A DNA stretch of 64,000 nt from Alistipes sp. Lineage in GTDB: Bacteria; Bacteroidota; Bacteroidia; Bacteroidales; Rikenellaceae. Position numbers and translations under genes: made by a program. Below, in pieces: positions 29,216 through 47,198 of this stretch. The stretch is taken from positions 28,474-92,473 of the forward strand of contig JAFQOR010000029.1 in NCBI GenBank assembly GCA_017403125.1, read 5' to 3'. The notes beneath the pieces were generated by a model. The model had not been told where the DNA came from and searched no databases. It saw nothing but the letters and a program-made list of their open reading frames with translations. How positions within the stretch are numbered: the stretch's first letter is position 1; every line of letters begins with the position of its first letter.

Positions 29216-29246
29216 GTAGTGTTCCACGTGGAACACTACTTTTTTT
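29216..29246 (+). terminator. Terminator of the pheS-mnmG operon containing a parS core
   Basis: A perfect 24-bp palindrome (29216-29239) is followed by seven T residues (29240-29246). The stem centre is the parS sequence described separately, so one element may serve both functions. Confidence 0.8.
29220..29235. other. parS chromosome-partitioning site (perfect match)
   Basis: TGTTCCACGTGGAACA is identical to parS sites known from pseudomonads and fits the general parS form TGTTnCACGTGnAACA bound by ParB. It sits in a terminator palindrome, which alone would be an alternative explanation; a second copy in ilvE (29958-29973) supports the parS reading. Confidence 0.7.
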
Positions 29247-29480
29247 CATATAACTATTACAATAATACCCGAATGAGAGGATAAAAGACAAAAGATTATA
29301 AGCCCTGATAATCAACGCATTAAGCCCCTATCATAAAAACGAACACCTCTAAAATCAGCCATCAGAAGGGATGTAGATAACCATAGCAAAGAGAAAGGGC
29401 GAATGAGATGTGCTCGATGCACCGCCCATTCGCCCTATTTACCGAGAGGCAGCATACAGCCCCCTCTGCCACGCGAGATA
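29247..29480. other. Convergent intergenic gap
   Basis: The remainder of the 293-bp mnmG-ilvE gap. It is AT-rich on the left; a GGGCGAAT (29398-29405) / ATTCGCCC (29428-29435) pair can form a hairpin and probably terminates ilvE. No gene is seen. Confidence 0.5.
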
Positions 29481-30494
29481 CTACTCAACAACCACGTTCC
29501 AGTTGTGAATGTCCTCTACGCGACCATACTGGATACCCTGCAAGTGATCGTACATCTTCTTGCATGTTTCGCCAACCTTCATGCCGTAGTCGTAGGTAAC
29601 GTTGTTATCCAAGTCATACAAAGCACCAATGGGCGAGATAACGGCAGCAGTACCACAAGCACCAGCCTCCTCGAATGTAGAGAGCTCCTCAACAGGAATA
29701 TCGCGCTCCTCAACAACCAAGCCGAGGTCAGCAGCAATCTGACGAAGGCTCTTGTTGGTGATTGACGGGAGGATAGAAGCCGACTTCGGAGTTACGTAGG
29801 TATTATTCTTAATACCGAAGAAGTTAGCAGCACCAAACTCCTCAACCTTGCTGTGAGTTGCAGCATCGAGATAGAGAACATTAGAGAAGCCCTTCTTGTG
29901 AGCAGATTCAAGTGACCAAATTGACGACGCATAGTTACCACCAACCTTAACGTCACCTGTTCCACGTGGAGCAGCACGGTCCTGATCACGCATGATGAGA
30001 GCCTTGATAGCTGTCATACCACCCTTGAAGTAGGGACCTACGGGAGCACAGAAGATAATCAAATCTGCCTCATCAACGGCACGTACGCCCAAGCAGGGCT
30101 TTGTGCCAAGAAGTGTAGGACGCAAATAGAGCGATGCGCCAGTCTCGTAAGGAGGAATGAAATCGGCGTTACGACGAACACACTCCACACAACCCTCAAC
30201 AAACTGCTCAACAGTAGGCGCGGGCAAACAAAGACGATTTGCAGAGTTGATCATACGCTTTGCGTTCTCATCGGGACGGAACAAACGTACCTTGCCATCG
30301 ACACCGCGGAAGGCCTTCAAACCCTCGAATATCTCCAAACCATAGTGCAAGCAAGCTGCCGACATGTGCATCTTGATGTACTCATCGTCGGTTACCTGCA
30401 TCTGGCTCCACTCGCCATTGGCATAGTGATAGCGTACATTGAAAGCGGTCTTGTAGTAAGCAAAACCAAGCTCACCCCATTTAATGTTTTCCAT
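29481..30494 (-). CDS. ilvE: Branched-chain amino acid aminotransferase
   Basis: 337 residues, PLP fold type IV. It interconverts Leu/Ile/Val and their 2-oxo acids. SAACLHYGLEIFEGLKAFRG and LRPTLLGTKP are substrate-loop blocks. The PLP lysine lies in GDVKVGGNYASS, and FEEAGACGTAAVISP holds the phosphate-binding turn. The N-terminus MENIKWGELGF matches the type II BCAT family. The gene carries an embedded 15/16 parS match. It follows metG by 55 bp on the same strand and may share its transcript. Confidence 0.94.
   Translation of the reverse strand: MENIKWGELGFAYYKTAFNVRYHYANGEWSQMQVTDDEYIKMHMSAACLHYGLEIFEGLKAFRGVDGKVRLFRPDENAKRMINSANRLCLPAPTVEQFVEGCVECVRRNADFIPPYETGASLYLRPTLLGTKPCLGVRAVDEADLIIFCAPVGPYFKGGMTAIKALIMRDQDRAAPRGTGDVKVGGNYASSIWSLESAHKKGFSNVLYLDAATHSKVEEFGAANFFGIKNNTYVTPKSASILPSITNKSLRQIAADLGLVVEERDIPVEELSTFEEAGACGTAAVISPIGALYDLDNNVTYDYGMKVGETCKKMYDHLQGIQYGRVEDIHNWNVVVE
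29958..29973. other. Second parS-like site inside ilvE (15/16 match)
   Basis: TGTTCCACGTGGAGCA differs from the parS at 29220-29235 at one base. It is not part of a terminator and lies in coding DNA 738 bp away. Clusters of parS sites a few kb from the origin are the normal arrangement. Confidence 0.65.
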
Positions 30495-32761: not shown

Positions 32762-35218
32762 TTAAAAATAGTATGACACGTTAAGTAAAAATGTGCGAGG
32801 ATAGGCGTAGGTAAGTTTGTTGTCGAAGGGCGTGACTGCCATATATCCACCCCTCTCGATAGTGCGAACACGATTCTGCTCATAGCTGCTATACACCATC
32901 CTACCACCCAAAATATTGCGTACACCAAGACGAAGATATAACATGCCTGCATCATCAAAATCAAACCTCTTTGCCACCTCAACATCAAAACAGAGCGCGT
33001 TGGGCAGATGCTGCTGGGACATAAGTTGCGCCCTCTCCTCGGGTGACGATGCAAACGACACCACACGCTCCATGCGACGCACTAACGACGGCTCCACATG
33101 GCGCAAAGCATGGTACTGTACAGCAAGCGTGGCTGACCATCCGTTTAGCGAACGGTAGCGCACATTGGCATAGAGCGACAATGTGGGCATAGAGGTGCGA
33201 CATCCGCCAATATGGCTTTTGCTCGTTGCTACCTCATTGTTGTTATCATCGTTATAGAGCACAACTTCGGCATCCTTACGATAGTGCGCATCGCCCACAC
33301 GCAACATAAACTGCGATGTAAGACGCCGCGTATATGTTACGTTAGCGGTAGCTTCGATACCATAGCTCAACCGCCCTATGCCACTAACAACAGCATCGCA
33401 ATAGCTATCCGATAGGTCGTCGTAGTAGCGGACGACATCACACTCATTTCCGGTAACTATAAAATAGGGTTGCACCAAAAGCTCCGTACGCTGACTCATA
33501 ATGGAGTAGGTCATCTGCGCGGCAAAAGTTGTTGCAAGGCGCGCGTTATCGACCACACGATTGTTGTATTGTGGTTGCAAAAAGAGGTTGTCCACATCGG
33601 GCATATCGCCACGCAATAACAGAGATGCCGATAGTTTATGAATGTCGAATACTCGAAGCCACGCAGCATGCAGAGCATAAGGGGCAAGTTTTACCCTCGG
33701 GGACTTACCATAGGAGAGCGCACCCGGAAATAGCTCCTTCTCATAAAAACCCCTACGCTGCACCCCCTCCAACGCAATGCTTGCTCCCGCCGAGAATAGA
33801 TTCCCAAAGAGCCTCCACTCAGCCTCGGCAAATAGCCTCGCACGCAACTGCGAAGTGCGATAGTCGTAGCCAAACTTATCGCCAAGATATACCCTGCGGT
33901 TAGGGAAAGCCACGTTGTTCTGCCTACCCTCGGTTGCAGTGTCATCACCCACGTAGAAGTAGTCGTAATCGTAGATGTATTGTGCGCCTAAAAGGTCGTC
34001 CATGCGCTTAAAGTTGCGCTCTGCAACATAATCCAAGCTGACACCATAGTCTATTGTGGCTACATTATATATGCTGCGAAACAGAGCGCCTAAACCACCT
34101 CTAAACCTATTACTATGGCGCCTCTCAACGGCATAGGCAGCGTGCCCATCCGTCGCCAAATAGTTCGTATGGTAAAGCGCATCCCAATCTATCTGCGTAT
34201 ATCGCAGGTCGTTTCTGCGCCACGCCTGCTCTACCTCCAACGCTACATCCTCTCGCTCGAAATAGGAGGGTAACAAACGATAGTTATCCGGAAGTGGCGA
34301 CGCGGCATCGTACCACGCCAACGAGGTCAAGGCATCCGCCTCGTAAACTAAATCTGCCGACACCATAAACTCGGTAAAAGAGCCCACCATCGCACGCCAT
34401 GAGGCAAGTAGCTCGGGACGTAACTCGCGCGCTATACGAGCATTGCGTTCACGACCATGTTGCATACCCCACGATGGGTTGTAGAGTGCGTTCCCAAGTA
34501 GCGTAAATGCCTCCTCGGTAGATGCTTGACGCAAGCCTCTTTCGGACCATGCCAAGAGCAGAGCGGCATCGAATACTCCGCGCCCCGCCTTCAAGACTAC
34601 ATCGGCACCTATCTCCACCTTATTGCTAAATACCCCCTCGACATAGAGGTCACGACCACCATAGGCACGAGCCACAACACCCACCGACGGGTCATCTTTG
34701 AGCCCGACACCCGACGACGAGGGTTTGAACCTGCCGACATAACTCAAACCTCCAAGATAGTTGCGCCCCGAGAACTCGCCTCGAAGAGCATGATACCTCG
34801 AATAGGGTCGGGGCTCCGAAAACTTATAGCGCACAGTGGATACCAAAGCGGCGCCATCGCCAACACTACCTACCCCCATTGCCTCTTCGCGGTCGTAGCG
34901 CAATGTTGTGAGCAGGCGCGATGTAGCGTAGTCAATCTCCAAGTTACCAACAATATATCGCTGCTCGTTATAGCCCACACCACGCCTGTTTTGCGCTATG
35001 TGCGACCAGAAATATGTAGGAATAGCAGAGTTGAAACCAAGCATCGGCTGCTCACTCGACAGAGAATCCACCTCCATGAGCCACAGTGGCTCGTAGGCAT
35101 CCTCCTTATAGAACTTAAACTCGCGATAATCGAACGTCGGCTCCTGTGCTACAAGCGAGGGGCAAAAGAGCATGGTCAGAACCGCGCATAACATTGTCGT
35201 TTTGACACAATTTATCAT
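32762..35218 (-). CDS. Outer-membrane β-barrel protein, TonB-receptor-like but without a visible plug
   Basis: 818 residues. Signal peptide MINCVKTTMLCAVLTMLFCP, cleaved near VAQ. The mature protein is made of alternating aromatic β-strands (for example YGVSLDYVAERNF, LRARLFAEAEWRLF, LSLYANVRYRSLNGWSATL) and ends LLNVSYYF, the C-terminal aromatic signature recognised by BamA. The last third (LYLRLGVRNILGGR) resembles the barrel of TonB-dependent receptors. No carboxypeptidase-like domain, TonB box or plug domain is visible at the N-terminus. No SusD partner is adjacent. The transported or bound substance is unknown. Confidence 0.75.
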   Translation of the reverse strand: MINCVKTTMLCAVLTMLFCPSLVAQEPTFDYREFKFYKEDAYEPLWLMEVDSLSSEQPMLGFNSAIPTYFWSHIAQNRRGVGYNEQRYIVGNLEIDYATSRLLTTLRYDREEAMGVGSVGDGAALVSTVRYKFSEPRPYSRYHALRGEFSGRNYLGGLSYVGRFKPSSSGVGLKDDPSVGVVARAYGGRDLYVEGVFSNKVEIGADVVLKAGRGVFDAALLLAWSERGLRQASTEEAFTLLGNALYNPSWGMQHGRERNARIARELRPELLASWRAMVGSFTEFMVSADLVYEADALTSLAWYDAASPLPDNYRLLPSYFEREDVALEVEQAWRRNDLRYTQIDWDALYHTNYLATDGHAAYAVERRHSNRFRGGLGALFRSIYNVATIDYGVSLDYVAERNFKRMDDLLGAQYIYDYDYFYVGDDTATEGRQNNVAFPNRRVYLGDKFGYDYRTSQLRARLFAEAEWRLFGNLFSAGASIALEGVQRRGFYEKELFPGALSYGKSPRVKLAPYALHAAWLRVFDIHKLSASLLLRGDMPDVDNLFLQPQYNNRVVDNARLATTFAAQMTYSIMSQRTELLVQPYFIVTGNECDVVRYYDDLSDSYCDAVVSGIGRLSYGIEATANVTYTRRLTSQFMLRVGDAHYRKDAEVVLYNDDNNNEVATSKSHIGGCRTSMPTLSLYANVRYRSLNGWSATLAVQYHALRHVEPSLVRRMERVVSFASSPEERAQLMSQQHLPNALCFDVEVAKRFDFDDAGMLYLRLGVRNILGGRMVYSSYEQNRVRTIERGGYMAVTPFDNKLTYAYPRTFLLNVSYYF

Positions 35219-35250
35219 CGGTTTCTACTTAAAGATGGATTATCGGGTAA

Positions 35251-35258
35251 CAAAATTA
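35251..35258 (-). promoter_or_regulatory. -7 box TAATTTTG for the outer-membrane barrel gene
   Basis: The minus-strand TAATTTTG predicts a start near 35244, about 26 nt before ATG 35218. Confidence 0.6.
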
Positions 35259-35315
35259 CAAAAAAATGTCTATCTTCGCTACATCGTGTAAAGAACAATA
35301 TAGACTTCGACACAT

Positions 35316-35786
35316 ATGAAACGTATTATCAACCCATGGGTCGGCTTGGAGGGCTATGGCTGCTATGGCTGCGACCCGAACAACCATCACGGACTCCGCA
35401 TGGAGTTTATGGAGGATGGCGACTACGTAGTATCTACATGGCATCCGCGCAGAGAGTTCGAGGGGTGGCGCAACACACTTCACGGCGGTATTCAGGCAAC
35501 ACTTGCCGACGAGATAGCGAGCTGGACCATATTTCGCAAACTGCAAACCGGAGGTGTGACATCAAAGATGGAGGTTAAGTATCTGCGCCCGATATACATA
35601 TCCGACGGCGATATCGTACTACGTGCCCACATCGCCGAGCAACGACGCAACTTGGTGCGTGTAGCAATAACGATTGAGAATGGTCGCGGTGAGCGTGCCA
35701 CCGAGGTAGAGTGCCTCTACTTCACCTTCCCGCAAGATAGAGCACGCGAGGAGTTCTGCTTTCTACCCTTCGAAGTTGAGGAGTAG
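35316..35786 (+). CDS. PaaI-type hotdog-fold thioesterase
   Basis: 156 residues. The hotdog core contains NTLHGGIQATLADEIASW, the helix-turn with the HGG motif used by acyl-CoA thioesterases, and MEVKYLRPIYISDGDIVLRA, the paired β-strands. An N-terminal CYGCDPNNHHGLRM motif (CxxC and HxH-like) is common in this subgroup. It probably hydrolyses an acyl- or aryl-CoA; specificity is not readable. It is divergent from the barrel gene and followed by a terminator. Confidence 0.85.
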   Translation: MKRIINPWVGLEGYGCYGCDPNNHHGLRMEFMEDGDYVVSTWHPRREFEGWRNTLHGGIQATLADEIASWTIFRKLQTGGVTSKMEVKYLRPIYISDGDIVLRAHIAEQRRNLVRVAITIENGRGERATEVECLYFTFPQDRAREEFCFLPFEVEE

Positions 35787-36110
35787 AGATAAGACCATAT
35801 TCATAATATACGCCATACACCATAACAGCACATGGCTATGCCTTGCCACCGCTCCGAGAATGAGGGAGTGAGTGGTGGCATAGCCTCTGTTTTTGGTGGG
35901 CTCGAAGGTGCTATTAAGCATAAAATTTATCTATTTTATAAAAATTTTCTTCTTACATTTTGCAGTTTCGAAAAAAGTACCTAACTTTATAATCCGCAAA
36001 GCAGTTTAAGCAGCCCTATCCAACCCGAACCCCTTGGGGCTTACAGGGCAAGTGCGAAGAAAAAGTGGCGAAAAAACTAACAATATAAATAGAACTAAAA
36101 ATTCAATATT
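35787..36110. other. Intergenic gap upstream of EF-G2
   Basis: This 324-bp gap has a terminator at 35832-35896 and an AT-rich promoter region. TAACTTTA (35982-35989) is one base off the -7 consensus, with a leader of about 115 nt to EF-G2 that contains the self-complementary CCCCTTGGGG (36031-36040). A long leader would suit a regulated translation-factor gene. Confidence 0.5.
35832..35896 (+). terminator. Terminator of the thioesterase gene
   Basis: GGCTATGCC and GCCACC pair with GGTGGC and ATAGCC around a GCTCC/GGAG inner stem, and TGTTTTTGG follows. Confidence 0.75.
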
Positions 36111-38264
36111 ATGAAAAACTATTCAGCAAAAGAGATTAAGAACATCGTTCTTATTGGTGCGCCCGGCGCCGGAAAAACTACCCTTGCAGAGGCAATGGCT
36201 TTCGAGGGTAAGGTTATTGATCGCAGGGGTAGTATCGAGACAAATAACACAATCTCGGACAACAGCGACATAGAGCACGAATATAAGCGTTCGATCTATT
36301 CTACGACCCTCTTCACCGAGTTCATGGATCGCAAGCTCAATATCATTGACTGCCCCGGCTCGGACGACTTCTGCGGCTCGCTCTTCTCGGCATTCAAGGT
36401 AGGTGACGTTGGCGTTATGGTACTCAACGCACAGAATGGTTGGGAGGTTGGCTCGGAGCTTCAATCTCGCTACGCACGCATTCTTAATAAGCCCCTTATT
36501 GGTGTTATAAACCAGCTCGACGGTGACAAGGCAAACTTCGACGCTACGTTAGAGGGTATTCGCGCCAACTCATCGGTTAAGCCCGTTATCGTACAGTATC
36601 CTATCAATCAGGGTACCGGCTTCGACTCGTTCATCGACGTTCTCATGATGAAGATGTATAAGTTCATAGATGAGAATGGTAAGCGCGAGGAGCACCCTAT
36701 TCCCGAGAGCGAGATGGACCGCGCTACGGAGCTCAATCAGGAGCTTGCCGAGGCAGCAGCCGTATATGATGACGCTCTTATGGAGCTCTACTTCGAGAAG
36801 GGTTCACTCACTCAGGACGACATTCGTGCCGGCTTGAAACTTGGTGTATCGAAGCGTGATATTATGCCCATCTTCTGTGCTTCGGGCAAGAAGGATATCG
36901 GTACAAAGCGTCTTATGGAGTTCATCATCAATGTTGCTCCGGGTCCCATCAAGGCACCTGCATTCCTCACTACCGAGGGCGAGGAGCTTCACGCTAACGC
37001 CGAAGAGCCTACCGCAGCATTCGTATTCAAGAGCCAGATTGAGCAGCATATCGGTGAGATTACCTACTTCCGCGTTATCCGAGGTAAGGTTACCGAGGGC
37101 ATGGAGCTTGTAAACTCTCGCACAGGCAATAAGGAGAAGCTCTCGCAGCTCTTCGCTGTTGCCGGTAAGAACCGTATTAAGGTTTCGGAGCTTTCGGCAG
37201 GTGACATTGGTTGCACCGTTAAGCTCAAAGGTACACGCACAAACGACACATTGGCGGCACCTTCGACTCCCGTCACTGTTGAGCCTATCGTATTCCCCGA
37301 GCCTCGCTACCGTGCAGCCGTTAAGGCAAAGGAGCAGAGCGACGAGGAGAAGTTGGGTAAGTTGCTCAACGATGCCAAGTATGAGGATCCTACAATCTTG
37401 GTAGAGTACTCGAAGGAGTTGAAGCAGACCATTATTCAGGGTCAGGGTGAGCACCACCTCAACATCTTAAAGCAGCGTCTTTCGACCGAGAACAAGATGG
37501 AGATTGAGTACTTCGCTCCCAAGATTCCGTATCGTGAGACTATTACGAAGGTTGCACAGGCCGACTACCGCCACAAGAAGCAGTCGGGTGGTTCTGGTCA
37601 GTTTGGTGAGGTTCACATGGTCATCGAGCCCTACTACGAGGGCATGCCCGAGCCTACGAAGTATAAGGTTAATGGCCAGGAGATTGCAGTTAGCGTTAAG
37701 GGTAAGGAGGAGTACGACATGCCATGGGGTGGTAAGTTGCAGTACTACAACTCGATTGTTGGTGGTGCTATCGATGCTCGCTTCATGCCCGCTATCTTGA
37801 AGGGTATCATGGAGAAGATGGACGAGGGTCCGCTCACAGGTTCTTATGCACGCGACATCCGCGTAGTCATCTACTACGGTAAGATGCACCCGGTAGATTC
37901 AAACGAGCTTTCGTTTAAGCTTGCAGGCCGTAACGCCTTCAAGGATGCGTTCCGCAACGCAGGTCCCAAGATTATGGAGCCTATTTACAGCGTTGAGGTC
38001 CTCACTCCGAGCGAGTATATGGGTGCCGTGATGAGCGACTTGCAGAACCGTCGTGCCATGATTATGGGTATGGAGTCGGATAAGGGCTTCGACCGCCTCA
38101 ATGCTCGCGTGCCTCTTGCAGAGTTGTATCGCTACTCAACATCGTTGTCATCTCTTACATCTGGTGCTGCTACCTACACCATGCAGTTTGCATCGTATGA
38201 GCAGGTTCCCGCCGATGTTCAGGAGAAGTTGTTGAAGGCCTACACCGACACCGACGAGGATTAG
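36111..38264 (+). CDS. fusA2: EF-G2: elongation factor G paralogue with altered GTPase site
   Basis: 717 residues with the full EF-G domain order: G domain 1-275, II, III, IV (SGGSGQFGEVHMVIEPY) and V (GAVMSDLQNRRAMIMGME). The G motifs depart from canonical EF-G: P-loop GAPGAGKTT instead of AHIDAGKTT, G3 DCPGSDDF instead of DTPGHVDF (the catalytic His is Ser), and G4 NQLD instead of NKMD. This matches the Bacteroides EF-G2, reported as a translocase that works without GTP hydrolysis and is made under carbon limitation for gut colonisation. A normal fusA must be elsewhere. Monocistronic, with a terminator downstream and a ~115-nt leader. Confidence 0.92.
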   Translation: MKNYSAKEIKNIVLIGAPGAGKTTLAEAMAFEGKVIDRRGSIETNNTISDNSDIEHEYKRSIYSTTLFTEFMDRKLNIIDCPGSDDFCGSLFSAFKVGDVGVMVLNAQNGWEVGSELQSRYARILNKPLIGVINQLDGDKANFDATLEGIRANSSVKPVIVQYPINQGTGFDSFIDVLMMKMYKFIDENGKREEHPIPESEMDRATELNQELAEAAAVYDDALMELYFEKGSLTQDDIRAGLKLGVSKRDIMPIFCASGKKDIGTKRLMEFIINVAPGPIKAPAFLTTEGEELHANAEEPTAAFVFKSQIEQHIGEITYFRVIRGKVTEGMELVNSRTGNKEKLSQLFAVAGKNRIKVSELSAGDIGCTVKLKGTRTNDTLAAPSTPVTVEPIVFPEPRYRAAVKAKEQSDEEKLGKLLNDAKYEDPTILVEYSKELKQTIIQGQGEHHLNILKQRLSTENKMEIEYFAPKIPYRETITKVAQADYRHKKQSGGSGQFGEVHMVIEPYYEGMPEPTKYKVNGQEIAVSVKGKEEYDMPWGGKLQYYNSIVGGAIDARFMPAILKGIMEKMDEGPLTGSYARDIRVVIYYGKMHPVDSNELSFKLAGRNAFKDAFRNAGPKIMEPIYSVEVLTPSEYMGAVMSDLQNRRAMIMGMESDKGFDRLNARVPLAELYRYSTSLSSLTSGAATYTMQFASYEQVPADVQEKLLKAYTDTDED

Positions 38265-38300
38265 TCTTGGTCATTGGGCATACCGGCCCAACAAATTTCG

Positions 38301-38337
38301 AGGAGTCGTCCCCACAAGGGATGGCTCCTTGCTATTT
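38301..38337 (+). terminator. Terminator of EF-G2
   Basis: AGGAG...TCCC pairs with GGGA...CTCCT across a CACAA loop and is followed by TGCTATTTT. Confidence 0.65.
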
Positions 38338-38439
38338 TGGGGCATGAAATAAAACATAGAGTAGGTCGTTTCCATACTCTATATATAAATATAAGTATTG
38401 CAGTATTTAGGAAGATTGCCATTATTCGGAGTTTTTTTG

Positions 38440-38447
38440 TACCTTTG
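38440..38447 (+). promoter_or_regulatory. -7 box TACCTTTG for sppA-mrp
   Basis: TACCTTTG predicts a start near 38454 and a ~20-nt leader to ATG 38474. Confidence 0.65.
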
Positions 38448-38473
38448 CATTACAAATCTTTATTATTTGAAGT

Positions 38474-40312
38474 ATGAGCTTTTGGAAGATGTTCGGGGCG
38501 TCGGTAGCCTCGGTATTTGTGGGAATAGTTGTTATAACACTAATAATCGTCTTCTCTTTGACATCGCTCTTCTCGTCTTTCAAGGTCGAAGGAGGGAAGA
38601 TGCCGGAGAATGTTGTCCTATATCTCGATTTTTCGGAGAATGTGGTGGATTCGCCCAGAGTATCGATGTTGAGCGAGATAGACCCCATAAACATGACTAT
38701 TAGTCAGCCACTTACCATATTGCAAGTGCTGTCAGCAATTGAGAGTGCAGCTATCGACCCAAATGTCAAGGCGCTGTGTATTCGTCAGAATGGCATGGGA
38801 ACTATATCTACGGCAAATATCGAAGAGTTGCGCGCAGCCATCGAAGCCTTCAAGCTGTCGGGTAAGCACGTTATTGCCTACGACGAGATTTACACACAGA
38901 GCGAATACTACCTTGCATCGTCTGCCAGCTACGTGCTTATGCACCCGGAGGGAACTATCGAGTGGCATGGTCTGTCGTTTACGCCCGTATTCTTCAAAGG
39001 TCTGTTGGATAAGGTAGATGCCAAGGTCGATACCTTCCGTCCGAAGGATTGCAAGTACAAGAGTGGCGTAGAGCCCTTCATAATGACCAAGATGTCGGAC
39101 GCTAATCGCAAGCAGATGAATGCTCTTGCCGAGTCGATATGGAACTCGGTGGTTGAGGATGTAGCAATCAGCAGATTGTGCGACAAAGAGATTCTCAAAG
39201 AGGCGGCTCGCCAGCTCGATATATCTACTGCCGAGGATGCTTTGACATATGGTCTTATCGACGAGATAGCATATGAGGATAGTCTATACGACTTGTACGA
39301 GAAGTTGGGTGTAGGTCGTAACGAGTTTGGCGACTTCAACTGCATATCCATTGGAGAGTATATCAACATCCAACAGTCACAACAGCTCGCAACGCTCCTT
39401 AACAGTGGTTTGGATACCACATTCGTGCAGAGCGATGGCACACCATTGGTTGCTATAATATATGCCGACGGCGAGATTGTCGATGGCAATATGGTTATGG
39501 ACGACTACGTTTTCAGCTCTACCTTGGCATCGCAACTACGCCAAGCACGTCTCGATAATGATACCAAGGCTGTCGTTGTGCGCATAAACTCTCCCGGAGG
39601 CTCTGCCATAGCTTCGGACGTGATATGGCGCGAGATGTCGCTACTGCGCGAGACCAAGCCCCTTGTAGTATCTATGGGCGAGGCGGCAGCAAGTGGTGGT
39701 TACTATATGTCGGTGCCTGCCGACTACATCTTCGCAAATCGCACCACACTAACGGGCTCGATAGGTGTCTTTGGTTTGAACATTAACCTCGAAAACACAC
39801 TTAAAAACATGTTGGGCATAACCTTCGACGAGGCAGCTACATCCTCTTCGGCGGGAGGCATATCGCCCATACGACCCATAACCACCGAGCAACGACAACA
39901 GATGGAGCAGAGTGTAGATCGCATCTATAACACCTTCGTACAGCACGTTGCCGATGGTCGCAACCTCGACAAGGAGTATGTTTACGACATTGCCGAAGGC
40001 AGGGTATGGAGTGGCGACGAGGCAAAACAGAAAGGTCTTATTGATTCGATAGGTGGTCTTGTTGATGCCATATATTGGGCTGCCGACTTGGCAGATGTAG
40101 TGCAGAACTTTGCCATTTACGAATTTACACCCCCTATGACCTCAATAGAGCAGTGGGCAGAGATTATTGGCTCGCTCTTCCTATCGGATACGGGAGTTAG
40201 TATGCCCAAACTCGGGGAGCAAATCGAGGCTCTCTTCATGGAGTATCCTTACGTTTTCACATATCAGGGTATCAAGGCTATGATGCCCGTACGCATGAGT
40301 ATAAATCTTTAA
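38474..40312 (+). CDS. sppA: Signal peptide peptidase SppA, long (67K) type
   Basis: 612 residues. An N-terminal membrane helix (about 8-35) anchors two tandem crotonase-like S49 domains. SppA degrades cleaved signal peptides in the membrane with a Ser-Lys dyad. The Lys should be in DCKYKSGVEPFIM of the first domain and the nucleophile Ser in GEAAASGGYYMSVPA of the second, the split arrangement of the E. coli-type enzyme. INSPGGSAIASD and NRTTLTGSIGVFG are the flanking family blocks. mrp follows 12 bp later. Confidence 0.93.
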   Translation: MSFWKMFGASVASVFVGIVVITLIIVFSLTSLFSSFKVEGGKMPENVVLYLDFSENVVDSPRVSMLSEIDPINMTISQPLTILQVLSAIESAAIDPNVKALCIRQNGMGTISTANIEELRAAIEAFKLSGKHVIAYDEIYTQSEYYLASSASYVLMHPEGTIEWHGLSFTPVFFKGLLDKVDAKVDTFRPKDCKYKSGVEPFIMTKMSDANRKQMNALAESIWNSVVEDVAISRLCDKEILKEAARQLDISTAEDALTYGLIDEIAYEDSLYDLYEKLGVGRNEFGDFNCISIGEYINIQQSQQLATLLNSGLDTTFVQSDGTPLVAIIYADGEIVDGNMVMDDYVFSSTLASQLRQARLDNDTKAVVVRINSPGGSAIASDVIWREMSLLRETKPLVVSMGEAAASGGYYMSVPADYIFANRTTLTGSIGVFGLNINLENTLKNMLGITFDEAATSSSAGGISPIRPITTEQRQQMEQSVDRIYNTFVQHVADGRNLDKEYVYDIAEGRVWSGDEAKQKGLIDSIGGLVDAIYWAADLADVVQNFAIYEFTPPMTSIEQWAEIIGSLFLSDTGVSMPKLGEQIEALFMEYPYVFTYQGIKAMMPVRMSINL

Positions 40313-40324
40313 TAATATAAGTAT

Positions 40325-41380
40325 ATGAACGAACAATTAGAGGCTCTGCTTCGCCAAATCATACACCCCGAAACAGAGCAAAACATCGTTGATAGCGGCT
40401 TTGTAGATCGCGCTGACAGAGGAGAGGATGGAAATATTGCCATCACACTCCGTTTTCAGAAGGCCCGCGATCCCTTTGCACAGAAGATTAAGGCACAGGT
40501 AGAAAGGGTTGTATCAGAGCATTTCCCCGGCGTAAACGTCATGGTTATCATTCGTGAAGCTGCTCCGAAGCCACGACGTCGCGAGCAGCAGACAACAACT
40601 TCGGATATATGTCGCATCGTTGCCGTTGCTTCGGGCAAGGGAGGTGTCGGCAAATCTACGGTTACGGCAAATATAGCTGTTGCCCTACGCCAACGTGGCT
40701 ACAACGTAGGTGTTTTGGATGCCGATATTTATGGACCGTCGCAGACAAAGATGTTTGGTATAGAGGATTATATTCCCGAAGCAGAGCGCGACGAGGAGGG
40801 CAACGAGTATATTATTCCGGCACAGTCACTCGGCATAAAGGTTATGTCAATCGGCTTCTTCATCAAGCCTACCGACGCACTTATGTGGCGTGGCGCGATG
40901 GCAGTAAATGCACTGCACCAACTTATTCACCAGACACGTTGGGGTAAGTTAGACTATCTGCTTATTGACCTTCCTCCCGGTACGGGCGATATTCACCTCT
41001 CGATGATTAACGAACTTAAACTCTCGGGAGCAGTCATTGTATCTACACCTCAACAGATTGCCGTAGCTGATGTTATACGTGGCGTAGAGATGTTCCGTCA
41101 CAAACAGGTAGATGTTCCGGTGTTGGGCATCGTGGAGAATATGGCATGGTTTACACCCGAGGAGCTTCCCAACAATCGCTACTATATCTTTGGACGAGAG
41201 GGAGCGAAGCGTTATGCAGAAGAGTCGGGAATAGACCTTTTGGGTCAAGTACCTATCATACAGTCTATTATGGATGGATGCGAGGATGGACGTCCCGCCA
41301 CAGGCTTCGATTTACGTGTCGAGGAATACTATGCCCAGATAGCCGAAAAGATTGTTGATAAACTTCCAACAGAGTGTTAA
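40325..41380 (+). CDS. mrp: Mrp/ApbC P-loop ATPase (iron-sulfur cluster carrier)
   Basis: 351 residues. An N-terminal MIP18/DUF59 domain (1-90) is followed by a Mrp P-loop domain with the deviant Walker A GKGGVGKST (104-112), DADIYGPSQTKM and LIDLPPGTGDIHL. ApbC-type proteins bind and pass on Fe-S clusters, usually through a CxxC near the C-terminal part. Here the corresponding stretch reads WFTPEELPNNRYYIFG with no cysteines, which suggests a different ligand arrangement. The 3' end contains one of three TTATCAACA boxes of the putative origin (41353-41361). Confidence 0.92.
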   Translation: MNEQLEALLRQIIHPETEQNIVDSGFVDRADRGEDGNIAITLRFQKARDPFAQKIKAQVERVVSEHFPGVNVMVIIREAAPKPRRREQQTTTSDICRIVAVASGKGGVGKSTVTANIAVALRQRGYNVGVLDADIYGPSQTKMFGIEDYIPEAERDEEGNEYIIPAQSLGIKVMSIGFFIKPTDALMWRGAMAVNALHQLIHQTRWGKLDYLLIDLPPGTGDIHLSMINELKLSGAVIVSTPQQIAVADVIRGVEMFRHKQVDVPVLGIVENMAWFTPEELPNNRYYIFGREGAKRYAEESGIDLLGQVPIIQSIMDGCEDGRPATGFDLRVEEYYAQIAEKIVDKLPTEC

Positions 41381-41760
41381 AAGAGAGGTTAATAAAAGTC
41401 GATAACTTTTCAATAAAAATATTTGCTAATTTGGGAGTGGTTGCTGTATAAGTAACCACTCTCAATTTTCCAAATTTATTTACCTCTTTTTACCTACGAA
41501 GTTATTAAATGAAAAACAGGTGAAGTTGTTAATTTCTATACGATGTAGATATGTTGATAACAGATTTTTTAATTGTGTTTATATCTTCTCAATTTGCTGA
41601 TGTTTAATATCATATTAAAATTTATTTATCAACAAACAAAACCCAAAATGTCAATAAAACTATTTAGCAAAAATTACCAACACTTTCGACACCCTTTATT
41701 ATTATTGTTTTATTTTATTTATTAAATTAGTAATTAAAAACTAAAAAAACTGTTGTTGAA
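41353..41760. other. Candidate replication origin (oriC): DnaA-box cluster and AT-rich unwinding region
   Basis: Three exact copies of TTATCAACA, one base from the DnaA box TTATCCACA, lie at 41361-41353 (minus), 41560-41552 (minus) and 41626-41634 (plus), plus the weaker TTATCGACT at 41405-41397. They precede an extremely AT-rich tract (41692-41748), a plausible unwinding element. The cluster sits where plus-strand composition changes from C>G to G>C. parS sites lie 12 kb to the left. No dnaA is present in the window, which is not unusual in this phylum. It remains an inference without a computed skew curve. Confidence 0.6.
41434..41470 (+). terminator. Probable terminator of sppA-mrp
   Basis: GAGTGGTT (41435-41442) pairs with AACCACTC (41454-41461) across an 11-nt loop; the tail TCAATTTTCC is only weakly T-rich. 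Confidence 0.6.
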
Positions 41761-41950
41761 AGATTTGGTTTTAGTTGGCTTGAACTCGAAGATTGAGACC
41801 TATTAAGAAGTGTGTTAAACCGAACCATAATATCCGGGCTATCCCGATTTTGCTAAATGTAAACCATAGCTACGTCTCCATTACATAGGTTAAAACGGGA
41901 TTAAGGAGAAACAAACTAAAAAAAAATCTTAATTTTTTGAAAATAATTGA

Positions 41951-41958
41951 TACCTTTG
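41951..41958 (+). promoter_or_regulatory. -7 box TACCTTTG for aspartate kinase
   Basis: TACCTTTG predicts a start near 41965 and a ~39-nt leader to ATG 42004. No well-placed -33 element is seen. Confidence 0.5.
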
Positions 41959-42003
41959 GGGCGAAAATATTCCCATTCTTTATTTAATTTATATTAGTTG
42001 AAA

Positions 42004-43257
42004 ATGAAGGTATATAAGTTTGGAGGTGCCTCGGTTAAGGATGCCGCAGGAGTACGTAACCTTCTCGATATAGTCAAGGGCGAGGATGAGCTCTTTATCA
42101 TTGTATCAGCCATGGGCAAGACTACAAATGCCTTGGAGGGTGTGTTCGAAGCTATGCAACTATCCGATACAGCTTTGGCAATGCAGCGTATAGACGACTC
42201 TTTTTCCTACCATAAATCTATAATCGAAGAGCTCTATAACGAGGGTTTTGTGATTGAGCCGGTAAATGCCCTTTTTGACCAGTTGCGTAGCACGGTACAA
42301 AATACCATATATCATAAGTCCGATGCCGAGCTTTGGTACGACACGATTGTTGCCTACGGAGAGCTTATTTCTACAACCATAGTATCCCACTTCTTGAATG
42401 TTAATGGTGTAAAGAATGAGTGGGTGGATATGCGTCGTGCCTTCCTCACCAACGCGCGGCACAAGGATGCAAACGTAAATATTGAGGCTTCGGAGTTGCG
42501 TTTGAAGCGTGAGATGGAGGGTAGCGATAAGAGAGTATTCATAGGTCAAGGTTTCATTGGTGGAGCTCCGGATGGTACTACAACCACACTTGGTAGAGAG
42601 GGTTCGGACTACTCGGCAGCCATTGTTGCCAATATTCTTGATGCAGAATCAATGAGCGTATGGAAGGATGTGGATGGAATACTCAATGCCGACCCGAAGA
42701 TTTTTCCGGATGCCCGCAAAATCGAGCGCCTAAACTATATGGATACCATAGAGATGGCATATAGTGGAGCACAGATTATACATCCCAAGACCATTAAGCC
42801 GTTGCAGCAGAAGAGTATTCCGCTCTATGTTCGTCCCTTTGGTGATAAGCTTGCGCCGGGCTCTATCATCACGGGCGATGTTGAGCGTGCCTATGAGCCT
42901 ATAATGATTCAGAAGAGTAATCAGGTGTTGTTGCGTCTTCACTCTCGTGACTTGTCGTTTGTCTTGGAGGAGAAGTTTGGTAGAGTATTTTCAACGTTGG
43001 AGAGTCATCGCATAAAGACCAATCTTGTGCATAACTCGGCAGTTGAACTCTATCTATCGGTGGACTCTTCGTGGCACATCGACGAGGTTATTGCGGAGTT
43101 GGAGGCCGAGGGCTTCGATGTAGAGTGCAGACGCGATGTGGTAATGGTTACTATACGATATTATAACGATGACCTTTATCATCGTTATGGCTTCGATGAG
43201 CGTATCATAATAAAGCAATCTACACCTCACTCGTTGCGTTTTGTGCGTACAAAATAG
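42004..43257 (+). CDS. Aspartate kinase, monofunctional
   Basis: 417 residues from ATG 42004 (MKVYKFGGASVKDAAG); an in-frame TTG at 41998 is less likely. It phosphorylates aspartate, the first step to Lys, Thr, Met and diaminopimelate. KFGGASV is the ATP/aspartate signature. TTTLGREGSDYSAAI is the second kinase block and VWKDVDGILNADPK the third. Two short ACT-like segments near the C-terminus (from about 300) would bind the feedback inhibitor. No homoserine dehydrogenase domain is fused. From here rightwards plus-strand G clearly exceeds C. Confidence 0.93.
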   Translation: MKVYKFGGASVKDAAGVRNLLDIVKGEDELFIIVSAMGKTTNALEGVFEAMQLSDTALAMQRIDDSFSYHKSIIEELYNEGFVIEPVNALFDQLRSTVQNTIYHKSDAELWYDTIVAYGELISTTIVSHFLNVNGVKNEWVDMRRAFLTNARHKDANVNIEASELRLKREMEGSDKRVFIGQGFIGGAPDGTTTTLGREGSDYSAAIVANILDAESMSVWKDVDGILNADPKIFPDARKIERLNYMDTIEMAYSGAQIIHPKTIKPLQQKSIPLYVRPFGDKLAPGSIITGDVERAYEPIMIQKSNQVLLRLHSRDLSFVLEEKFGRVFSTLESHRIKTNLVHNSAVELYLSVDSSWHIDEVIAELEAEGFDVECRRDVVMVTIRYYNDDLYHRYGFDERIIIKQSTPHSLRFVRTK

Positions 43258-43333
43258 GGGCGGATTGTTCTGTTAAGTACGTAAATCAAAAGGATATAGG
43301 TTAGAAAAAAAATTAAATTTTGGTGCTTTGGGT

Positions 43334-43363
43334 TTTGAAAACTAAAAATTTTATTTACCTTTG
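43334..43363 (+). promoter_or_regulatory. Promoter of rplY-pth
   Basis: TTTG (43334-43337) and TACCTTTG (43356-43363) are spaced 18 nt. The start would be near 43370, leaving a 79-nt leader that can fold as GGTAC...GTACC around TCATAA/TTATGA. Confidence 0.65.
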
Positions 43364-43448
43364 CACTCCCAAGCAGGTACTTATGGGGTCATAACAGTTG
43401 ATTATGATTGAGTGGTACCGAAGTTAAATAAATAATTTACAAAACATT

Positions 43449-44009
43449 ATGCAGTCAATTCAGATTAACGGTACTGCCCGCAACACTTTCGGTAAGAAGT
43501 TTGCAAAGGCAGCACGTCGCGAGGGTAAGGTACCTTGCATTATTTATGGTGGTGGCGAGGAGAAGGCATTTACAATCGATGCCAAGGAGCTTAATCAGCT
43601 TATCTACACTCCCAACTCATACATCATTGAGCTTAATATCGATGGTGTTATCGAGCGTGCGGTAATGCGCGAGGTGCAGTATCACCCTGTTCGCGAGCAG
43701 GTTCTCCATGTTGATTTCTACCGTATCCAGGAGGGTAAGGCCGTTGCAGTAAACGTTCCCGTTCGCCTTACAGGTAATGCCGAGGGTGTTAAGGTGGGTG
43801 GTAAGCTCGCTTTGTCGGCTCGTAAGCTCACAGTTAAGGGTCTTGTTGAGTTTATTCCCGATGAGATCGTTATTGACGTTACTCCTTTGCAGGTTGGTCA
43901 GACTATCTTCGTTGGTGACATCCAGCGCGAGAACCTTACTTTCCTCACTCCTGCAACTACCGCAGTTTGCGCTGTTCGTGTAACACGTGCTTCACGTGCC
44001 GCACAGTAG
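43449..44009 (+). CDS. rplY: Ribosomal protein bL25, CTC type
   Basis: 186 residues. The N-terminal ~95 residues are the 5S-rRNA-binding L25 domain (QINGTARNTFGKKFAKAARR, VPCIIYGGGEEK, YHPVREQVLHVDFYRI). The C-terminal ~90 residues form the extra β-domain of CTC-type L25 (VPVRLTGNAEGVKVGGKL, VEFIPDEIVIDVTPLQVGQT). It binds 5S rRNA in the central protuberance. pth follows after 43 bp, a common pairing. The hairpin in its 79-nt leader could be an autoregulatory site. Confidence 0.95.
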   Translation: MQSIQINGTARNTFGKKFAKAARREGKVPCIIYGGGEEKAFTIDAKELNQLIYTPNSYIIELNIDGVIERAVMREVQYHPVREQVLHVDFYRIQEGKAVAVNVPVRLTGNAEGVKVGGKLALSARKLTVKGLVEFIPDEIVIDVTPLQVGQTIFVGDIQRENLTFLTPATTAVCAVRVTRASRAAQ

Positions 44010-44616: not shown

Positions 44617-44707
44617 TACGACTAAGCAATCTCTTTGACCATTGTCATGTATTAGTAGCAGTGCATGGCTTTTCAAGACGAGAGATTGTTGCTGTAATAA
44701 AAATAGG

Positions 44708-44942: not shown

Positions 44943-47198
44943 ATGAAAAAATTAAGCTGGTTAATGATGCTTATGACGGCAATGACATTGTCGTTGGTAG
45001 GTTGTGGTGAGGATCCTGTTGAACCCACGCCCCAACCTGGTCCTAATCCTCCCGCTCCCGAGCCTACGGAGCTTACGTTTGATGTAGAGATTACGGATGT
45101 TACGAAGGCTCGTATGTTCTTTGATGTTACACCTTCGAACAACGAGGCTGAGTACTTGTGTATGGTATATGAGGCAGATTTTGTTGATAGCTACTCAAAG
45201 GACGAGTATCTTGTAGGAGAGATTTTTAATCAAGTATCGGAAGAGGCAGCAAATGAAGGTCTTGTTTTGGGTGAGTATTTGACCAATATCGCCGATAAGG
45301 GTGCTGTTAAAGATGGTTCTTTCAGTGGACTTGTAGTTGATACCAATTACTATCTTTTGGTGTTTGGTTACGAGTTTGACGAAGAGAACGAAGAGTATGT
45401 TCTTAACGGCTCGTTGGTACGCGAGGCTTTCACGACTGAGCCTGCTCCTCAGTTGAACGTTACGTTTGATGTAACTACCTCGGTAGAGAAGAATACCGTT
45501 ACGTTTAGTGTTGTTCCCTCTGATAAGGAGGTGTTCTGGCACCTTATCTCTTGTGAGAAGGCTATGACAGATCAGTACATGACCGAGGGCGGAATGTCTT
45601 TGCAGGCATTCTATATGCAGTATGTACAGCAGGAGATCGATGCCTATGCAAAGCGTGGCTATCCGGCAGATAAGATCATGGAGGCAATCTTCCTTAAGGG
45701 TGATTTGGAATTGACAGCAAAGGGTCTTAATGCTTATACCGAGTATGACTACCTTATTGCCGGATTTGTTGTTGACGAGGATGGTATCTATATTGCTACC
45801 GACGTAGATCGTGACGACTATACAACGCAGGAGCCTATGTACACTGGTATGACATTCGATATTACTGTTGAGAATGTTACTACTGCACGTGCCGACATCA
45901 AGATTGTTCCTTCAGACTTAACGCAGAATTACTTCTGGATTGTTAATCCGTATGATGGAGTAAGCACAGCCGAAGAAGTTGCACAGTCGATTATAAACGA
46001 GTGGGGTATGTGGATGAGCATGATGTGTAATTACTCTGGTGTTCAGGACTATACCGAAGCCGGTCCCCATTATAAATTTAGACTTGAGACAGATAACAAG
46101 GAGTATTGTGTGATTGCGTTTGGTTATGCTAATGCTCTTACTACCGAGCCTACTATGGTTACATTCCAGACTGTAAAGGGTGTTGAGGCTATCGATGCTC
46201 AGTTTGAGCTTGAAGTAGTGGATATCACATCGGATGGAGCAAAACTCAAAGTAACCGCCGAGGATGAGTCTGTACAGTACATGCCTAACGTGGTTGTTGC
46301 AAGTGAGTTCAAAGATCCCGAGACGATGCTCGAGGAGCTCAATGCGGACCTTAAGGTAATGTATCAGGAGATTGTAATGGGTAATCAGGGAGCTGGTATG
46401 CCTGCTCCTTCATATCCCGAGGTATTGAATCAATACTATTATCGTGGAAATCAGGTACTGAGTGCTAATGGTTTGACTTCGAATACGGAGTATAAGCCTT
46501 ACATTATGGTATTTGATGATAAGACGTTCGAGGTTGCCAAGATTTTGGAGTATGATACCTTCACAACGCCTGGCGAGGGTAATATCAATCCTACACTCTC
46601 TCTCAAGGGTATCTTCTCTGGTGACGAGGAGAATGGTCAGATTTGGACTGATGATGATGGTAATCCCGTGGCTAACGGTTATGCAATCGCTGTTATAAAG
46701 ATTGAAAATTATAGCGGAGCAAAATCGTTGTACTTTACAAGCATCGACCAGGATTATACCTACGAAGCATCATACTCGGATGAGTACTTGATGTCGAGTC
46801 TTGGTTGGTCTGATAATTCAGGTGGTACACCCTATACTGAAGCACCTTATATCTTCACGCTACTCTCATGGAATGTGGATTACTCGTTCTTCGCTTATGC
46901 CGTAGATGAGAATGGTGGTGCTGGTAAGGTGGGTCGATTGGCAGTAAAACCCCTTGCAAAGGATAAGCAGCCTATCGATAAGTTGATTGAGCTTTACGAA
47001 GAGGCAAACAGCAGTGCAAGCGCCTATGTTCCCGGTTCATTGGTTATTGAGAACGGTGGTGTGAATATTCCCGTTCCGACAATTACATGCATCGACGAGC
47101 CCAAGGTTGAGAAGCAGCGCAAAGCAGTTGTTGAGGAGGTAGTAGAGCCCGGCTTGATTATCTTGGATTACGTTACTCCCTATTTGTTGCGTGACTAA
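44943..47198 (+). CDS. 751-residue repeat lipoprotein, copy A
   Basis: Signal and lipobox MTAMTLSLVGCGED (Cys21), then a Pro-rich linker (PTPQPGPNPPAPEP) that would lift the protein off the membrane. Four ~110-130-residue β-rich repeats follow, each opening with a similar strand: LTFDVEITDVTKARMFFDV, VTFDVTTSVEKNTVTFSVV, MTFDITVENVTTARADIKIV and AQFELEVVDITSDGAKLKV. They look like Ig/FN3-type modules. A conserved C-terminal domain (from about 555, ending YLLRD) is nearly identical in copy B. Function not recognised; surface exposure is likely. Copy B follows 99 bp later; a terminator separates them. Confidence 0.8.
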   Translation: MKKLSWLMMLMTAMTLSLVGCGEDPVEPTPQPGPNPPAPEPTELTFDVEITDVTKARMFFDVTPSNNEAEYLCMVYEADFVDSYSKDEYLVGEIFNQVSEEAANEGLVLGEYLTNIADKGAVKDGSFSGLVVDTNYYLLVFGYEFDEENEEYVLNGSLVREAFTTEPAPQLNVTFDVTTSVEKNTVTFSVVPSDKEVFWHLISCEKAMTDQYMTEGGMSLQAFYMQYVQQEIDAYAKRGYPADKIMEAIFLKGDLELTAKGLNAYTEYDYLIAGFVVDEDGIYIATDVDRDDYTTQEPMYTGMTFDITVENVTTARADIKIVPSDLTQNYFWIVNPYDGVSTAEEVAQSIINEWGMWMSMMCNYSGVQDYTEAGPHYKFRLETDNKEYCVIAFGYANALTTEPTMVTFQTVKGVEAIDAQFELEVVDITSDGAKLKVTAEDESVQYMPNVVVASEFKDPETMLEELNADLKVMYQEIVMGNQGAGMPAPSYPEVLNQYYYRGNQVLSANGLTSNTEYKPYIMVFDDKTFEVAKILEYDTFTTPGEGNINPTLSLKGIFSGDEENGQIWTDDDGNPVANGYAIAVIKIENYSGAKSLYFTSIDQDYTYEASYSDEYLMSSLGWSDNSGGTPYTEAPYIFTLLSWNVDYSFFAYAVDENGGAGKVGRLAVKPLAKDKQPIDKLIELYEEANSSASAYVPGSLVIENGGVNIPVPTITCIDEPKVEKQRKAVVEEVVEPGLIILDYVTPYLLRD

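What the first reader, a model, noticed from the sequence alone, without database searches (positions are those of the whole stretch)
35000..44000. Strand composition flips here, placing a replication origin inside the window
On the plus strand C exceeds G on the left and G exceeds C on the right, independent of gene direction. Hand counts of single 60-base lines: 24901 (plus gene) G10:C20; 30601 (minus gene) about G12:C21; 37921 G17:C17; 39601 G18:C18; 40681 G16:C15; 43081 (plus gene) G26:C9; 52321 (minus gene) G17:C10; 54961 G18:C16. A plus gene with C>G on the left and a minus gene with G>C on the right rule out a simple coding-strand effect. C-to-G is the direction expected at an origin.
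Basis: partly seen in the sequence, partly recalled or inferred. Interest (0 to 1): 0.8.

Follow-up and report, generated by a model that had tools for sequence, protein, structure and literature searches.

The report
Chromosomal replication origin of an Alistipes
The strand-composition flip marks the place where this gut bacterium most likely starts copying its chromosome: a short, conserved, AT-rich stretch next to the mrp gene, and, as is usual in this phylum, apparently not beside the gene for the initiator protein DnaA.

Summary
All 8 hand counts are exact. GC skew rises by about 0.11-0.12 from left to right within plus genes and within minus genes. The raw minimum near 36 kb partly reflects gene direction; allowing for it, the change lies within 36.6-42.3 kb. 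Sequence evidence puts the origin at about 41.38-41.77 kb, 3' of mrp. The window is an Alistipes metagenome-assembled genome. In a single-contig relative (24% sampled) the skew minimum falls beside mrp; in another, 18 of 18 stretches before mrp are C-rich and 9 of 9 at or after it G-rich. The closest relative, G016, fits poorly: its weak change lies 10-17 kb from mrp. The mrp flank carries a covarying hairpin, TTATCRACA boxes (59 against 0.6 in shuffles, 48 loci) and a tandem-box/DnaA-trio module (47 of 54 loci). An exact parS palindrome, single in this genome, lies 12 kb away. This is a new member of a known kind. Possibly new: Rikenellaceae DnaA has N for D in its box-reading motif (9 of 9 loci read, against 0 of 29 from other Bacteroidales families).

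The parts
41381..41770 (.). Proposed oriC: conserved AT-rich noncoding element between mrp and an aspartokinase gene (whole gap 41381-41997)
   Evidence: Holds the most AT-rich 300 bp of the 92-kb contig (0.78; runner-up 0.77 at 44,678); conserved blocks in 27 loci, little conservation beyond them
40325..41380 (+). mrp/apbC, Fe-S carrier P-loop ATPase; conserved neighbour of the origin
   Evidence: Pfam PF10609 E 5.7e-87; best NCBIfam hits ApbC and MrpORP, both below their cut-offs
41431..41465 (+). Terminator-like hairpin after mrp, between mrp and the boxes
   Evidence: Fold -23.5 kcal/mol, z -7.1; 9 of 11 pairs with compensatory changes in 21 sequences; not listed by the consensus terminator scan, probably because its tail has only 4 T
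41353..41361 (-). DnaA-box-like TTATCAACA inside the end of mrp
41552..41560 (-). DnaA-box-like TTATCAACA
41626..41634 (+). DnaA-box-like TTATCAACA
41649..41657 (-). DnaA-box-like TTATTGACA
41674..41691 (+). Tandem DnaA-box-like pair TTACCAACA-CTTTCGACA of a basal-unwinding-type module
   Evidence: score 20, reached by 0 of 1000 shuffles
41695..41715 (+). DnaA-trio-like run after a CCC spacer (7 triplets, middle T here = middle A on the other strand)
41695..41755 (.). Nearly AT-only stretch, probable duplex unwinding element
   Evidence: Sequence; conservation
29220..29235 (.). parS-like palindrome TGTTCCACGTGGAACA (no mismatch), 12 kb from the proposed oriC
   Evidence: one place in the 1.84-Mb genome. 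Also forms a hairpin followed by T's after mnmG
29958..29973 (.). Second parS-like site (1 mismatch) inside an aminotransferase-type gene
38474..40312 (+). sppA-like peptidase gene, next to mrp
   Evidence: Pfam PF01343
30550..32592 (-). metG, near the flip here and in G019, G023 and G002
   Evidence: Pfam PF09334

Best explanation
The flip marks the origin of bidirectional chromosome replication (oriC) of an Alistipes species, in the AT-rich gap 3' of mrp (about 41,381-41,770). DnaA binds an array of TTATCRACA-type boxes; from the tandem pair at 41,674-41,691 it extends along DnaA-trio-like triplets into an AT-rich stretch, opens the duplex and loads helicase. Forks leave in both directions, so the strand shown is lagging to the left and leading to the right, which gives C>G and then G>C. 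ParB sites 12 kb away would segregate the new origins. dnaA and parB lie on other contigs. Shown: skew change, skew minimum near the homologous place in several relatives, conserved motifs, parS position. Inferred: DnaA binding, opening, ParB binding, origin activity.
For: Skew shift at fixed gene direction. Skew minimum at mrp in G090 and G019; strand-controlled GC change at 483.8-485.3 kb in G019 (0 of 1000 permutations), 243.4-245.8 kb in G023 (28 of 1000) and 24.8-30.2 kb in G002 (15 of 1000), with mrp 3' flanks at about 483.05, 246.3 and 25.4 kb. TTATCRACA in the first 430 bp after mrp: 28 in 27 close loci (shuffle mean 0.41, max 3), 59 in 48 loci (0.62, max 4). Unwinding module at score 18 or more in 47 of 54 Alistipes-like loci against 16 of 1080 shuffles. 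Exact parS palindrome in 7 of 11 genomes, one place each, within about 20 kb of mrp each time. Literature: oriC commonly far from dnaA in Bacteroidetes (PMC4755523, passages); origins of 12 mouse gut strains placed by skew plus parS clusters, supported by coverage, not always at dnaA (PMC10197239, passages).
Against: No canonical TTATCCACA in the contig, and TTATCRACA is not exclusive: 7 of its 10 places in the contig lie elsewhere. The window's own global minimum was not seen. Permutation maxima come close to the observed LR. In G016, the closest relative fetched, the GC change lies at 53.3-60.8 kb, 10-17 kb from the mrp flank, and is weak (50 of 1000 permutations). In G019 and G023 the GC range lies in the sppA-mrp gap, 0.5-3 kb off the flank; their T-A changes lie further off (G023 251.2-253.3 kb). 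11 of 51 mrp loci do not show higher GC skew right of mrp. 7 of 54 loci score below 18, and 2 of the 47 best hits are off-register. G061 is noisy; Rikenella G062 shows no clear minimum at mrp and lacks the module. Gene-strand bias in G090 does not mark the place. parS-like sites at 3 mismatches are not in excess (6, reached in 6 of 100 shuffles). No growth or binding data.
Confidence: 0.92

Rival explanations
1. The flip is the edge of a recent inversion: a segment from the other replichore was turned round, and there is no origin here.
For: Gene blocks 3-6, 15.8-32.6, 38.5-41.4 and 52-56.5 kb lie in other order and orientation in G016, where the weak skew change is 10-17 kb from mrp.
Against: G019, G023 and G002, with other local gene orders, change at or within about 3 kb of the same mrp flank; an inversion edge would not carry a conserved box array and unwinding module nor lie near the only exact parS.
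Confidence: 0.03
2. The flip is only a gene-direction effect: genes run mostly minus just left of 35.2 kb and mostly plus to the right.
For: Gene strand explains about 0.05 of skew each way, and the raw minimum lies where direction turns.
Against: Within plus genes and within minus genes skew still rises by 0.11-0.12; 0 of 2000 block permutations reach the observed LR.
Confidence: 0.02
3. An origin is here, but not in the gap 3' of mrp: rather at 35,787-36,110, at 38,265-38,473 or on the other side of mrp.
For: The change-point range reaches down to 36.6 kb; in G019 and G023 the GC change falls in or near the gap between sppA and mrp, a gap that is only 12 bp in the window.
Against: The scan of the contig put its only group of 3 box-like sites within 600 bp at 41,353-41,634, and the AT-richest 300 bp there; the AT-rich, box-bearing stretch lies 3' of mrp in relatives too.
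Confidence: 0.05

Closest known systems
Predicted oriC of Prevotella intermedia chromosome I (PMC4755523, passages read)
   Same: GC-skew transition, multiple DnaA boxes, not near dnaA; the authors state that this is common in Bacteroidetes
   Different: They searched with E. coli boxes and one mismatch; the boxes here are TTATCRACA-type and the neighbour is mrp
Basal unwinding system (BUS): DnaA boxes, spacer, DnaA-trios (PMC8287927, passages read)
   Same: Tandem boxes, spacer of 1-3 nt in most loci, 3 or more triplets, starting 3'-GAT in many relatives
   Different: Boxes depart from TTATCCACA; in the window the triplets are mostly 3'-AAT; not tested with protein
Origins placed by skew and parS clusters in 12 mouse gut bacteria (PMC10197239, passages read)
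   Same: parS near the origin, dnaA not always near
   Different: Those had coverage and Hi-C data; parS was searched there as TGTTTCACGTGAAACA with 2 mismatches, here the site is TGTTCCACGTGGAACA

Membership tests
Bacterial chromosomal oriC | Minimum of cumulative GC skew | tested here: met
   In relatives G090 and G019 and near it in G023 and G002; not in G016; in the window only locally
Bacterial chromosomal oriC | Cluster of DnaA boxes | tested here: met
   TTATCRACA 59 against 0.62 in shuffles, 48 loci; canonical TTATCCACA 0 in the contig
Bacterial chromosomal oriC | AT-rich unwinding element | tested here: met
   0.78 AT, highest 300 bp of the contig, runner-up 0.77 elsewhere
Bacterial chromosomal oriC | parS near the origin (common, not required) | tested here: met
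   Exact site 12 kb away, one place in the genome; 4 of 11 genomes lack the exact site
Bacterial chromosomal oriC | dnaA next to the origin (common, not required) | tested here: not met
   dnaA is on another contig, C31, at unknown distance; 1.36 Mb from mrp by the short way in G090 if its contig is a circle
Bacterial chromosomal oriC | Copy-number peak in growing cells; autonomous replication | not testable with these tools
   No reads or cultures
Basal unwinding system (BUS) | DnaA box(es), spacer up to 16 bp, at least 3 NAN trios | tested here: met
   Window score 20, 0 of 1000 shuffles; 47 of 54 loci at 18 or more, with my own scoring rule and TTATCRACA as the box
Basal unwinding system (BUS) | DnaA-dependent strand opening | not testable with these tools
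   Needs protein assays

The most novel reading that the evidence does not exclude
In Rikenellaceae the initiator and its binding site have changed together: DnaA has N at the position that aligns with D of RDHTT in the E. coli DnaA chain 1j1v (9 of 9 Rikenellaceae loci read, 0 of 29 loci from other Bacteroidales families), and the Alistipes origin boxes read TTATC(A/G)ACA instead of TTATCCACA. The family would then have its own initiator-origin code, with dnaA itself in the terminus half of the chromosome in at least one species (G090). Not seen here: the boxes of Rikenella and Millionella, which share the N, and the boxes of the other Bacteroidales.
Probability: 0.35. Interest if true: 0.5.

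Novelty: new member of a known kind. Interest (0 to 1): 0.36.

Why it matters
Origin positions are needed to estimate growth of gut bacteria from read depth (peak-to-trough methods). For a large, mostly uncultured genus this gives a marker (the mrp 3' flank plus parS) that can be used on fragmented genomes, and it repeats the warning against dnaA as an origin marker. The DnaA/box difference offers a possible natural case of altered initiator specificity.

Tried and rejected
Canonical TTATCCACA: no exact hit in the contig, which led to the TTATCRACA form; this form was chosen after seeing the flanks, so the shuffle comparison is not blind. Rfam and tRNA scans of the window found nothing. A chimeric contig was considered because GC content falls to the right and sppA is only 53% identical to the closest relative; rejected because 5 of the 7 genes right of 38 kb with a match in the fetched G016 stretch are 80-94% identical (the other two, sppA and a LytTR gene, 51-55%). 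Gap 35,787-36,110 near the raw minimum: no box group in the contig scan. Extending the mrp position to Rikenella and other Bacteroidales: 0 of 13 flanks carry the module. Gene-strand bias in G090 has its extremes elsewhere. Of the 80 mrp loci, 67 were used and 13 left out (some with incomplete matches, the rest more distant Bacteroidales not entered); L042 was dropped as too short. Of 40 genomes, 30 dnaA loci were returned and read, one of them this genome's. Paper searches: 'Alistipes'+'replication origin'+'GC skew' 0 papers; 'DnaA-trio'+'unwinding'+'origin'+'Bacteroid' 0; 'D433N'+'DnaA box' 0. DoriC itself was not consulted and may hold predicted Alistipes origins.
Full report
What the window is. 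It is bases 28,474-92,473 of contig C27 (92,473 bp) in a 1.84-Mb genome of 31 contigs, 88% complete. The mrp relatives at 80-84% identity are Alistipes or Rikenellaceae metagenome-assembled genomes from ruminant and other animal guts. Genes on both sides of the flip have close matches in the same relative, G016, so the contig does not look chimeric.

The observation. The eight quoted counts are exact. In 2-kb windows GC skew runs from -0.16 to +0.05 left of 35 kb, mostly negative, and from +0.05 to +0.19 between 41 and 60 kb, then near zero to the end of the window apart from the last bin; A-T skew is mostly positive on the left and mostly negative on the right. Gene direction matters: minus genes fill 29.5-35.2 kb and plus genes most of 35.3-58 kb. 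Separating the two effects, plus genes shift from +0.009 to +0.129 and minus genes from -0.095 to +0.014. A strand-controlled change point lies within 36.6-42.3 kb for GC and 35.7-42.9 kb for T-A. On the full grid 0 of 2000 block permutations reach the observed LR, though the largest come close (69.2 against 69.8 for GC, 51.3 against 55.5 for T-A).

Chromosome-wide test in relatives. In single-contig G090 (3.38 Mb, circularity assumed) 20 of 22 sampled stretches from 1.154 to 2.99 Mb have positive GC skew and 17 of 18 on the other arc negative (my count from the table); the best two-break fit is 1.16 and 3.00 Mb for GC and for T-A. mrp is at 1.153-1.154 Mb and dnaA at 3.168 Mb, so dnaA lies near the inferred terminus. 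In G019, 18 of 18 stretches before mrp are negative and 9 of 9 at or after it positive, the first of the nine containing mrp (540 of 675 kb). Strand-controlled GC changes: G019 483.8-485.3 kb (mrp 3' flank about 483.05), G023 243.4-245.8 (246.3), G002 24.8-30.2 (25.4), G016 53.3-60.8 (43.8). So three of four lie on or within about 3 kb of the flank, G019 and G023 on the sppA side of mrp; G016 does not fit, and its change is weak (50 of 1000 permutations). The T-A changes are less exact: G002 18.5-25.7, G019 476.3-483.8, G023 251.2-253.3, G016 44.3-64.4 kb. Coarse samples of G061 and Rikenella G062 are noisy. Across 51 mrp loci with at least 4 kb on each side, 40 have higher GC skew right of mrp; this is not corrected for gene direction and includes outgroups.

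The element. The gap after mrp holds the AT-richest 300 bp of the contig (0.78; the runner-up at 44,678 has 0.77), and in most close relatives the AT peak of the locus starts about 80-100 bp after mrp. Over this gap the window is 51-61% identical to 26 close loci, with sharply conserved blocks; the sequence after it shows little conservation (14 of 26 rows printed). In order: a terminator-like hairpin with compensatory changes in 9 of 11 pairs among 21 sequences (fold z -7.1); boxes of the form TTATCRACA (59 in 48 loci against 0.62 in shuffles); two boxes in tandem, a short spacer (1-3 nt in most), and repeated triplets running into a nearly AT-only stretch. This last part has the layout of the basal unwinding system described for B. 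subtilis and many bacteria (PMC8287927, passages). It scores 18 or more in 47 of 54 Alistipes-like loci (16 of 1080 shuffles) and in 0 of 13 outgroup loci. The box form alone is not exclusive: 10 places in the contig, 3 of them at 41,353-41,626, and 16 in the sampled 800 kb of G090, 2 of them behind mrp.

parS. An exact TGTTCCACGTGGAACA lies at 29,220 and a one-mismatch copy at 29,958. The looser pattern with up to 3 mismatches is not in excess (6 matches; 6 of 100 shuffles reach 6), so the weight rests on the exact site. It occurs at one place in this genome and in 6 of 10 relatives, each within about 20 kb of mrp; the other 4 have no exact site. In the sampled 540 kb of G019 and 800 kb of G090 there are two sites each with up to 2 mismatches, all within 7 kb of the proposed origin. 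Caution: the exact site in the window also forms a hairpin followed by a T run behind mnmG, so it could serve as a terminator; the second copy lies inside a gene. A ParB gene is on contig C7.

Initiator. DnaA of this genome is on contig C31, at unknown distance. Its box-reading motif is RNHATVLHS. Nine of nine Rikenellaceae dnaA loci read have NHAT, while 29 of 29 loci from other Bacteroidales families have D (26 DHAT, 2 DHST, 1 DHTT). The N aligns with D of RDHTT in chain 1j1v, a DnaA entry. That 1j1v is the E. coli DnaA-box complex, that this D touches the box, and that Millionella belongs to the Rikenellaceae, is recalled, not tested here. A co-change with the box is an idea, not a result.

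What is known. A paper on Prevotella intermedia states that oriC is commonly far from dnaA in Bacteroidetes (PMC4755523, passages), and a Hi-C study of 12 mouse gut bacteria placed origins by skew plus parS and urged caution with dnaA as a marker (PMC10197239, passages). The finding is a new, well-delimited member of a known kind.

Noticed in passing
window 44943-47198 and 47298-49553: Two neighbouring 751-residue proteins with lipoprotein-like starts, 57% identical and more alike towards the C-terminus, without Pfam or NCBIfam match: a tandem duplication of an unknown family beside the origin.
   Followed up: partly
G090:C1:3167896; G072:C5: dnaA lies near the inferred terminus of G090 and 1.55 Mb from mrp on the same contig in G072.
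   Followed up: partly
window 29216-29247: The parS-like palindrome is also a terminator-like hairpin with a T run behind mnmG: a possible dual-use site.
   Followed up: no
contig C27, about -28 to -20 kb in window coordinates: A stretch in which all listed ORFs of either direction have negative skew; genes not identified.
   Followed up: no
G016:C6:1-100000 against the window: Gene blocks around the origin are reshuffled and inverted between close species, and the weak skew change in G016 is 10-17 kb from the mrp flank; a recent rearrangement may explain it.
   Followed up: partly
window 32762-35218 and 59671-62037: Proteins of 818 and 788 residues without Pfam or NCBIfam match.
   Followed up: no
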